Shown here: positions 1 to 35,339 of the stretch, piece by piece
Position numbering within the stretch: position 1 is the stretch's first letter
Layout of the letters: every line of letters starts with the position of its first letter
Assembly (NCBI GenBank): GCA_003153975.1
Contig: PMBZ01000020.1
Location: 22,490 to 57,954, forward strand
Direction of reading: 5' to 3'
Source of the DNA: Hyphomicrobiales bacterium
GTDB lineage: Bacteria; Pseudomonadota; Alphaproteobacteria; Rhizobiales; Rhodomicrobiaceae
Length of the DNA stretch: 35,465 nt
Position numbers and translations under genes: made by a program
Notes under the pieces: generated by a model
The model's database searches: none
What the model was told of the DNA's origin: nothing
The model's input: the letters and a program-made list of their open reading frames with translations, nothing else

Positions 1-517
1 ACGCATAGCCAAATTTCATAACAGTATCCTACATCCGCACTCGCAAGACCTTGCGCCGCAATATCCCGGCACGCGCTTCTTGTCGCTAGCGCTTCTTTGT
101 TCCTTTATCGTTCACATGGTAGGCTTGCATGCACCTTGTCTCGCCGCGCCTGCACGGTTTGCTTGCGCATCATGTCAACACCTCCCGGTAAAGGCGTGGA
201 CAAATTCACGTTCCGGTTGTGTTCCTGGTTGGCTGCTGCCATCTTTGGGTCGGCCGCAAAGCGGTTTCGAATTGCAGAGTATAGCAACCGTATGTCTGCG
301 GGATCTTTTAAAAGAGCGTTCGCGTAGTTGTGGTCTTTATGGGATACTGGATGATACCGGAGGCAGATTTGCTGCTTAAATGTCATTGTAGTGTTGAGTT
401 GTATTTGGCATTGGAGATGGAGAACCTATCGCTGACGGATGGCTACCCGGTCCAGCCTGCTTTATGGCGGCAAAGCGTAAATGCGCGCGATGCCGGCCGC
501 TTGAAAAGCCAATTTAT
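1..517. other. Leading non-coding stretch, no supported gene
   Basis: I see no gene I can defend here. Open frames exist on both strands, but none has a Shine-Dalgarno sequence before its start, a signal peptide or a recognisable family motif, and their composition looks like translated non-coding DNA. The only local structure I noted is a perfect 12-bp palindrome, TCTTTTAAAAGA, at 304-315. A gene truncated by the left edge cannot be excluded. Confidence 0.5.
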
Positions 518-660
518 GAGGAGCGCTAAACTGCCGGTAAGAGACGGTGCCGCCGGCAGCCCGCAAGTTCGCTTCCGGGCTTTAGCCCGGCAATCGGCCG
601 GAGGGCACCGCGGAAGCGGGCGAGGTTACGAAGCCGTTGGCGCCGCGGATAGAAAATCGC
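518..660 (+). ncRNA. Candidate structured RNA element, copy A
   Basis: Starts GAGGAGCGCTAAACT and has a nearly identical inverted copy at the right end of the window (35 kb away). Visible structure: stem CTGCCGG (531-537) with CCGGCAG (553-559) enclosing the conserved loop TAAGAGACGGT; hairpin CCGGGC-TTTA-GCCCGG (575-590); CGCTTCC and GGAAGCG arms around that hairpin; and a TACGAAG motif at 627-633 followed by CCGT, which could pair with ACGG of the first loop. I do not recognise a known RNA family. It ends roughly 130 bases before the TTG start at 793, so it could be a leader of that gene or an independent element. Strand and right boundary are inferred from shared sequence only. Confidence 0.45.
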
Positions 661-792
661 TCCCCTTACCCAAGCGCAGCAATAAAAAGCTGGCTAAGTC
701 ACAAGACTTTTTCCCTGCTCTCTTGCCCCCTCCGCGGAACGAGGCGTTGAGGATTTCCCGCTACGGTCGCAGCCGTTGCGGAGGATTGCGAA

Positions 793-1271
793 TTGAGCGT
801 CGAAGCAAGGTTCCGGCTGGGTCTGACCCTCTTGATAATCGGCTTGGCGATGCCCAGCGGCGTCTTTCTCGTGCCGCTGACGGATTGGCCGGCGGAGGTA
901 AAGGCGGCCGTGGCGGGGATACTGTTTTTCGGCTTCGAGATCATGGCGCTTCCGGCGGCGGCGGTGATGGGCAAGGAGAACTTCGAAAGAATCCTTGCGA
1001 AATTGGGTGGCCTGCTGGGCTGCCTGAAACCTTCCGGCGAGCCTGGGCCGGTGCGCCATGCCATCGGCGTCGCCCTGTTTCTGCTGCCCATCGTCCCAAC
1101 CTACATCATGGCCTACGTGCCCTCATGGCTCCCGGACAGCTCTCCCTGGCGGCTGTGAATTTGGCCGCCGACGCTATGTTCTTGACGAGCCTTTTCGTGC
1201 TGGGCGGAGACTTTTGGGACAAGCTCCGGGCGCTGTTCGTAAGGAGGGCGCGCGCGGCGTTCCCGGAGTAG
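793..1271 (+). pseudogene. Frameshifted small membrane protein (transporter suffix domain-like)
   Basis: The TTG start at 793 has a strong GGAGG eight bases upstream (780-784) and opens a hydrophobic protein with membrane segments near residues 7-27, 37-58 and 88-108. This frame stops at 1156-1158, directly after ..DSSPWRL. A continuation typical of the family lies in another frame from about 1140 to 1271 (AAVNLAADAMFLTSLF.. then GGDFWDKLRALF). I remember the GGDFWDKLRALF ending from small proteins annotated as transporter suffix domain-containing. The simplest reading is one gene of about 158 residues with a one- or two-base indel near 1130-1150, either a real mutation or a sequence error. 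The alternative is a shorter intact 121-residue protein. Function unknown; a membrane location is clear. Confidence 0.6.
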
Positions 1272-5683: not shown

Positions 5684-7237
5684 TCACCGTCGCGACATGG
5701 CACGGCGAAGCATCGACGGCCGTACCGCGCCGGTCAGCACCGTCGCTGCCGCGTAGGCGAGAACGCCGGCCGTCACCAGCGCGCCGAGCGCCGCCGCGTG
5801 TATCAGGTTGCTCCTGCCGTCCGCGAAGAATGGGGCAAGGCGCAGATTGGCCGCGTAGAGTGCCGCGCCCATCAAGGCGCTCGACAGCACCAGCAGCGGA
5901 AGGCGCCGCGCCAGTGCGGCGTCGAAGCGGAAGTGTCCGCGCCGCATGAGCGTGAACGAAAGCTGAAGCGCGTTGGTCCAGCCGGAAAGCGAGGTGGCAA
6001 TCGCGATACCGGCGTGGCCGAATACCGGAAAGAGGATGAGCGAGCCCGCGATATTCACGGCCACCGACACGGCCGCGAACCACATGGGCGTGGACGTATC
6101 CTCGCGCGCGAAATAGCCCGGCAGGAACACCTTGTTCATGACATAGGCCGGCAGCCCGCAGGCGTAAGCCGCAAGCGCGATGGAGACCTGGGCTGTATCG
6201 GCGGCGGAGAACGTGCCGTGCTGGTACAGCACTTGGATGATCGGCGTTGGAATGATGACCAGGGCGACGGCAGCCGGCAGCGTAAGGAGGAGCGCGAATT
6301 CGAGGCTGCGGTTCTGGCTTGCCATGGCGCCCGCCTCGTCGTGTTCCGCGAGATGCCGCGTCAGCGTTGGCAGCAGCACGACGCCGATGGCGATGCCGAC
6401 CATGCCCAGCGGAAGCTGGTTGATCCGGTCCGCAAAGTACAGGAACGAGAGCGCTCCAGCCTGGAGCGAGGCGATGGTCGTGCCGATAAAGAGGTTCACC
6501 TGGTTGATGCCGCCGGTGATGATGCCGGGTACTGCGAGGGCGAGAAGCCGGCGCGTGCTGGGCGTCAGGCGCGGCCGGCGGAAGCCCAAATCCATGCCCG
6601 CCTTGCGCGCGGCGTAGGCCACGTAGACAAGCTGGGCAAAGCCCGCGACGGTCACGCCCCAGGCCTGGATGATTCCGGCCTCGGGCTGAGCGTAGAAGCC
6701 GCAGGCCGCGGCGAACAGCGTCACCGCGATCAGAACGAGATTGAGGAGGATGGGGGTAGCGGCCGGCGCGCTGAATCTGCCGAGCGCGTTCAAAATGCCC
6801 GCCGAGAGCGCCACGAACGCCATGCAGCCGAGATAGGGGAAGGTGATGCGCGTGAGGAGAACGGCAAGCTCGAATTTCTCGCCCTCGAAGCCCATGGCCA
6901 GGCCCCTGACGAGATAGGGCATGTAAATTTCGGCCAGGATCGTGGTTATGAGCACGCCCGCGAACAGGACCGCCAGCGCCTCCTCGGCAAAGCGGCGCGC
7001 GCTTTCCTGCCCCTCGCTGCGGAGCCGCTTGGTGAACATCGGCACGAAGGCCGAGTTGAACGCGCCTTCCGCGAACAGCGAGCGGAACAGGTTCGGGAAG
7101 CGGAAGCAGACGACAAAGGCGTCGGTGACCCAGCCCGCGCCCATGACGTAGGCGAGCAGCACGTCGCGCAGGAAGCCGAACACCCGGCTCAAGGCCGTCA
7201 GCCCCCCAACCGTTATGAATCCGCGATAGAGGCTCAT
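5684..7237 (-). CDS. murJ: Lipid II flippase MurJ
   Basis: 517 residues, the usual MurJ length. It moves lipid-linked peptidoglycan precursor (lipid II) across the inner membrane. The N-terminus matches the family closely: SRVFGFLRDVLLAYVMGAG and then RFPNLFRSLFAEGAFNSAFVP, placing Arg18, Arg24 and Arg52 at the functionally important Arg positions known from E. coli MurJ. About 14 hydrophobic segments run through the rest, including GIAIGVVLLPTLTRHL and LPAYVMNKVFLPGYFAREDTSTP. The gene is convergent with the DUF2380-like gene (12 bases between stops). The ATG start overlaps the TGA of a short upstream minus-strand frame as ATGA, but I do not trust that frame as a gene. Confidence 0.97.
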   Translation of the reverse strand: MSLYRGFITVGGLTALSRVFGFLRDVLLAYVMGAGWVTDAFVVCFRFPNLFRSLFAEGAFNSAFVPMFTKRLRSEGQESARRFAEEALAVLFAGVLITTILAEIYMPYLVRGLAMGFEGEKFELAVLLTRITFPYLGCMAFVALSAGILNALGRFSAPAATPILLNLVLIAVTLFAAACGFYAQPEAGIIQAWGVTVAGFAQLVYVAYAARKAGMDLGFRRPRLTPSTRRLLALAVPGIITGGINQVNLFIGTTIASLQAGALSFLYFADRINQLPLGMVGIAIGVVLLPTLTRHLAEHDEAGAMASQNRSLEFALLLTLPAAVALVIIPTPIIQVLYQHGTFSAADTAQVSIALAAYACGLPAYVMNKVFLPGYFAREDTSTPMWFAAVSVAVNIAGSLILFPVFGHAGIAIATSLSGWTNALQLSFTLMRRGHFRFDAALARRLPLLVLSSALMGAALYAANLRLAPFFADGRSNLIHAAALGALVTAGVLAYAAATVLTGAVRPSMLRRAMSRR

Positions 7238-34762: not shown

Positions 34763-35130
34763 GGCGAGCTGGCGGGCCGCCTGGCGGTAACGTCCGGCTA
34801 ACTCTACCATAGCTCTTTTTGCCACTTTTCGGCTACTCCAGGATGATGCCCGCTTTCGAAGCAATATAGCAGAAAAAGCCGAGGTAGTCGTTAAGTGCGC
34901 CATGCTATTAATATATCGTGCAAAACAGTGTCCTAAGGGGTTTGGCTGCTAGCCCGGTCTTGTTAAGAGCCAATATTAGACTATATTTAACGGGGTTTTG
35001 AACTGCGGAAATCGGCCGCCCAAAACAAGAAAAAATCAGCAGAAATGCGCGTCTGGAACACATGTGGCCCGTGCGTTTACCGCGTGCGTATTTACCATGA
35101 TAAGCTCCCACCCGAAATCAACCCTTCGTT
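34763..35130. other. Intergenic region, no gene seen
   Basis: A relatively AT-rich stretch (for example around 34905-34995, with TATTAATATATC and ATATTTAACG) contrasts with the GC-rich surroundings. Short frames occur on both strands but lack family motifs. On the minus strand an ATG at 35100 has GGGAG six bases upstream but stops after about 20 codons. Confidence 0.45.
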
Positions 35131-35339
35131 AATGCGGCGGCGGAAGCCGCGGAGCACCGTTCTTCGTCGCTGGCGGCCGTTTGGCCGCGGCGGCACTGCA
35201 TGCCCCGGTTTGGCCGGGAGGCCGAATTCGCCCAGCCGGATGGCGGACGCAAGAGCGCGCGGCTGCGCGCTTGGCACGGCTCCCTTATTGCCGCAATCCG
35301 CGGACGGATGAAAACAGAGCTGCCAAGCTTCGCCAGCGT

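What the first reader, a model, noticed from the sequence alone, without database searches (positions are those of the whole stretch)
518..660. Conserved RNA-like element present twice, inverted, 35 kb apart (copy A)
The first ~40 bases from 518 match the reverse complement of the last ~40 bases of the window with about three differences, although flanking DNA is unrelated. A second block, TACGAAG, is conserved at similar distance (about 110 vs 98 bases). Stems CTGCCGG/CCGGCAG and CCGGGC/GCCCGG are visible, and the bases after TACGAAG can pair with the first loop in both copies using different bases (CCGT with ACGG; TACC with GGTA). I recognise no riboswitch, RNase P, tmRNA, SRP or 6S signature. 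It may be an undescribed alphaproteobacterial ncRNA, leader or mobile RNA element.
Basis: partly seen in the sequence, partly recalled or inferred. Interest (0 to 1): 0.68.

Follow-up and report, generated by a model that had tools for sequence, protein, structure and literature searches.

The report
Species-specific dispersed intergenic DNA repeat
The matching block is one end of a roughly 750-base non-coding DNA repeat scattered through about 30 sites of one Rhodomicrobium-like bacterium; nothing tested shows it to be an RNA, so it looks like an ordinary, undescribed family of a known kind of repeat.

Summary
The sequence match is real: 518-557 recurs at the window's end with few differences. 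It is not two copies of an RNA. The window's end is also its contig's end, so copy B is only the last ~70 bp of a longer unit. The block is the right end of a ~748-bp non-coding repeat ("E") at about 31 loci of this genome, in subfamilies mostly 92-98% alike inside and ~75% between. Copy A fills window 1-583 and starts ~163 bp upstream. TACGAAG (627-633) lies outside E and is not shared by other copies. The proposed stems are broken in other copies, show no covariation above shuffles and fold no better than shuffled sequence. Rfam gives nothing. E was not found in four same-genus genomes, ~145 other relatives, phages, plasmids, or (exact right-end patterns) 84,980 species genomes and viral contigs. 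It has no conserved reading frame, terminal inverted repeats or clear target duplications. Best reading: a species-specific, non-autonomous dispersed repeat, comparable to CIR or RIME elements. A second repeat, X, beside both copies, has 141 matches here and none in 11 relatives. Where X lies near E it always points toward E; this is unexplained.

The parts
1..583 (+). Copy A of repeat E (subfamily A), right ~580 bp; the left end lies ~163 bp before the window (C229:22327)
   Evidence: 88-89% identity over 749-828 bp to the C118 and C149 copies; left end at C229:22327; alignment of all copies
518..583 (+).
   Evidence: Pattern search, alignment A3, model R1 in own genome
35396..35465 (-). Copy B of E: only the last ~70 bp, cut off by the end of the contig
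   Evidence: C229:57886-57954, minus; contig length 57,954

Best explanation
Shown: the block is the right end of a ~748-bp non-coding interspersed repeat (E) with about 31 full or partial copies in one genome, in at least two subfamilies. Inferred: E is a non-autonomous mobile element that was copied several times in this lineage, probably by an enzyme acting in trans that was not identified, and then decayed by deletion and point mutation. Its two copies in the window are independent insertions, not a paired functional unit. No cellular function is needed to explain it.
For: 13 pattern matches with none for the control; body, left-end and right-end searches give ~31 loci (list). Shared left and right ends, with internal deletions and truncations. 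Subfamilies mostly 92-98% identical inside, ~75% between. No shared reading frame, indels of 1 and 4 bases between subfamilies, no codon periodicity. About 17 of 536 contig ends lie inside E, expected ~1.6. Not found in congeners or other relatives. For 14 right-end copies with flanks read, neighbouring predicted genes lie outside E in nearly all.
Against: Insertion is not proven: no empty site was seen, no significant terminal inverted repeats or consistent target duplications, and no transposase beside the truncated copies read. One mid-element window folds better than column shuffles (z -3.9), so some role as RNA or DNA structure is not excluded.
Confidence: 0.8

Rival explanations
1. E, or part of it, is a multi-copy small RNA or leader that folds and acts as RNA.
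For: Non-coding and conserved; one of 22 sliding windows, mid-element on the plus strand, folds better than column shuffles (z -3.9), with one C-G to G-C swap between subfamilies.
Against: No covariation or stability in the block named; no Rfam match; no promoter-like match in window 1-800 and only as many terminator-like sites as in shuffles; the swap is a single event shared by a subfamily.
Confidence: 0.08
2. E is the non-coding remnant of one known insertion sequence or MITE family, and still carries recognisable ends.
For: Dispersed, deletion derivatives, fixed ends.
Against: TIR scores are not above shuffles, flanking duplications are inconclusive; no transposase with the same ends was found in the loci read.
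Confidence: 0.1
3. The two copies in the window form an inverted pair that bounds a 35-kb mobile island.
For: Two copies in opposite orientation bound the window.
Against: About 31 loci lie on many contigs in both orientations. The spacing is set by where the window was cut and where the contig ends. Genes identified between are ordinary, such as gyrase A, squalene/phytoene synthase, an amino acid permease and an aminotransferase.
Confidence: 0.02

Closest known systems
CIR elements, intergenic repeats of Caulobacter and Brucella (reviewed in PMC2229807)
   Same: Intergenic, multi-copy, non-coding, no terminal inverted repeats, target duplication unknown, alphaproteobacterial
   Different: CIRs are ~110 bp, carry conserved GANTC sites, have two long RNA arms and are shared between species; E is ~748 bp, GANTC-poor, without supported arms and was found in one species only
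RIME, Rhizobium-specific intergenic mosaic elements (Osteras et al. 1995, cited in PMC2245857)
   Same: Dispersed intergenic repeats of Hyphomicrobiales that can be mistaken for small RNA candidates
   Different: No sequence comparison with RIME was made
Bacterial MITEs and TIMEs (PMC4133298, PMC2229807)
   Same: Non-autonomous, non-coding, multi-copy
   Different: No significant terminal inverted repeats or target duplications; about 2.5 times the upper size given for MITEs in PMC4133298

Membership tests
MITE | Terminal inverted repeats | tested here: not met
   Local alignment of left end with reverse complement of right end, 5 copies: 32-172 of 200 shuffles score at least as high
MITE | Short target duplications at both ends | tested here: inconclusive
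   4-6 base shared words in 5 copies, not at a fixed place
MITE | Multi-copy, no transposase gene inside | tested here: met
   ~31 loci; no shared frame, no Pfam match
MITE | Size about 30-300 bp (PMC4133298) | tested here: not met
   748-bp consensus matched end to end by two copies
CIR element | Conserved GANTC sites in a ~110-bp repeat | tested here: not met
   0-2 GANTC per copy, fewer than expected by chance; length ~748 bp
CIR element | Conserved across alphaproteobacterial species | tested here: not met
   No copy found in four congeners or other relatives
RIME | Sequence similarity to RIME1 or RIME2 | not tested
   No reference RIME sequence was compared
Structured ncRNA family (Rfam) | Match to a known family | tested here: not met
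   No match at gathering score; only chance-level hits below it
Structured ncRNA family (new) | Covarying base pairs across copies | tested here: not met
   Stems of 518-583: no measure above shuffles; RNAalifold covariation term +0.37
Structured ncRNA family (new) | Transcribed as a discrete RNA | not testable with these tools
   No transcript data available here

The most novel reading that the evidence does not exclude
E and X form a linked pair: X, a rigid, nearly gap-free ~170-bp site present about 140 times, attracts or directs insertion of E on its ACCATGAT side, so that X is a species-specific chromosomal landmark and E a repeat that targets it.
Probability: 0.12. Interest if true: 0.55.

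Novelty: new member of a known kind. Interest (0 to 1): 0.3.

Why it matters
It removes a false small-RNA candidate and replaces it with a repeat family that would confound assembly and RNA searches in this genome. The family, together with the far more abundant repeat X, was found in only one species of its genus among the genomes held, so it could show how intergenic repeats arise and spread when no transposase is visible. The one-sided placement of X next to E is a concrete, testable oddity.

Tried and rejected
Rfam at gathering score and at a permissive E-value: nothing. tRNA/tmRNA: none. Coding test on both strands: none. Inverted repeats around copy A: only weak 12-17 nt pairs. TIR and TSD tests: negative or inconclusive. 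A tail module beyond +65: strong in only 4 loci, not significant in copy A or B. Truncated copies at C149 and C193, read for a transposase near the break: none recognised among the open frames (not scanned against Pfam). X as an RNA: zero consensus pairs. X as a promoter of one flanking gene: no orientation bias relative to neighbouring predicted genes.

Full report
What was checked. The window is G000:C229:22490-57954, and the last window base is the last base of that contig. The match between 518 onward and the reverse complement of the window's end is real. A 29-base pattern built from it (up to 3 mismatches) gives 13 matches in the own genome and none for the reversed control.

What it belongs to. 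Aligning the copies in one orientation shows that the block is the right end of a longer unit. Copy A is 88% identical to the C118 copy over 828 bp and 89% identical to the C149 copy over 749 bp. The consensus of subfamily B is 748 bp long and is matched end to end at about 96-97% by two copies, C104 fully and C242 over 742 of the 748 bases. The left end begins near GGGTCGCAACCCGCCG and the right end stops near AGTCAGCTCCCGGCCT. Copy A therefore fills window 1-583 and begins about 163 bp before the window (C229:22327). Copy B is only the last ~70 bp, because the contig stops there.

How many copies. Whole-genome searches with the right end, the body and the left end give about 31 loci, full or partial (list); the weakest of these are short fragments at contig ends. 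Subfamilies A and B are mostly 92-98% identical inside (some A pairs 83-89%) and about 75% between. A third, more diverged group includes copies with an extra ~165 bp near the left end. About 17 of 536 contig ends fall inside the repeat, against about 1.6 expected from its share of the genome (the 17 was counted by hand from the listed loci), which is what short-read assembly does at true repeats.

Is it an RNA? The evidence is against it for the region named. Folding is no better than dinucleotide shuffles for 518-585, 518-660, copy B and two other copies. The two stems show no covariation above shuffles in 13 copies, and the third pair of the first stem is broken in 8 of 12. RNAalifold over 190 bp of the right end gives no covariation support. 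Rfam has nothing. TACGAAG lies outside the conserved unit, so the proposed pairing with the bases after it uses flank that other copies do not share. One of 22 sliding windows over the whole element, in its middle, folds better than column shuffles (z = -3.9), but with a single double change shared by one subfamily. This is noted and not claimed.

Is it a gene? No frame is shared by the subfamilies. A/B indels include 1- and 4-base changes, differences show no codon periodicity, and two of the longest frames have no Pfam match.

Is it a classical transposable element? It behaves like a dispersed element, but the hallmarks are missing: no significant terminal inverted repeats and no consistent target duplication, and no recognised transposase beside the truncated copies read. 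Membership among MITEs is therefore not claimed. It works like a non-autonomous dispersed repeat; the mechanism of spread is inferred, not shown.

Where it occurs. It was not found in four same-genus genomes, nor in about 145 other relatives (one 27-bp hit in a distant genome at E = 9e-4 is taken as chance). Exact right-end patterns give nothing in 84,980 species genomes or in viral contigs, and BLAST of window 1-600 gives nothing in plasmids or phages. These collections may leave out the window's own genome or very near ones. The nearest named relatives of one window gene are Rhodomicrobium species at 70% protein identity, so the host is probably a Rhodomicrobium-like bacterium (inferred).

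The neighbour X. Next to both copies lies another repeat, X (window 34960-35133 and C229:22017-22160). A sequence-only model of its 90-bp core gives 141 matches at E <= 0.01 in this genome and none in 11 relatives including four of the same genus (only 150 candidates per genome were scored, so 141 is a lower bound). Thirty copies align over ~170 bp almost without gaps, have no common RNA fold, and show no orientation bias relative to flanking predicted genes. Thirteen of 31 E loci have an X within 800 bp, and in all 13 X points toward E. The number near X is not significant if insertion is confined to intergenic DNA, under a rough seven-fold correction (p = 0.26). The one-sided orientation (13 of 13) is the odder fact and is unexplained.

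Closest known kinds. CIR repeats of Caulobacter and Brucella likewise lack terminal inverted repeats and reading frames (PMC2229807), but are ~110 bp, carry GANTC and are shared between species. RIME repeats of rhizobia were excluded among false small-RNA candidates in PMC2245857. MITEs are defined as small (about 30-300 bp) elements with terminal inverted repeats (PMC4133298). E is a new, apparently species-specific family of this general kind.

Verdict. Observation partly confirmed; RNA reading not supported; an ordinary but undescribed dispersed repeat, with a modestly interesting companion repeat.

Noticed in passing
window 34960-35133 (+); C229:22017-22160; 141 matches in the own genome: Repeat X: ~170-bp, nearly gap-free intergenic DNA repeat (core TATATTTAACGG...TTTTGAA...AAATGCGC...GTTTACC...ATTWACCATGAT), 141 matches here and none in 11 relatives including four congeners; no RNA fold and no gene-orientation bias.
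   Followed up: partly
13 E loci listed, among them C229:22041, C229:57470, C104:40448, C149:26224: Wherever X lies within 800 bp of an E copy it points toward E (13 of 13), whichever way E is turned. Unexplained.
   Followed up: partly
E alignment columns 480-600 (mid-element), plus strand: One of 22 sliding windows folds better than column shuffles (z = -3.9), with one C-G to G-C swap between subfamilies.
   Followed up: partly
L052 about 6969-7065, L049, C240 and C192 right flanks: A tail module (...AAAGCGTCGAAGTGTTGGGAAAGCCGG...) follows the right end in four loci, one of them a deletion derivative that keeps the left end.
   Followed up: partly
L121 3916-4083, L125 285-450, L126 start: A diverged subfamily of E carries an extra ~165 bp near its left end and always runs into contig ends, so longer copies may exist.
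   Followed up: no
L057 5116-5145 (C168): An isolated 30-bp fragment of the E right end (93% identical) without the rest of the element.
   Followed up: no
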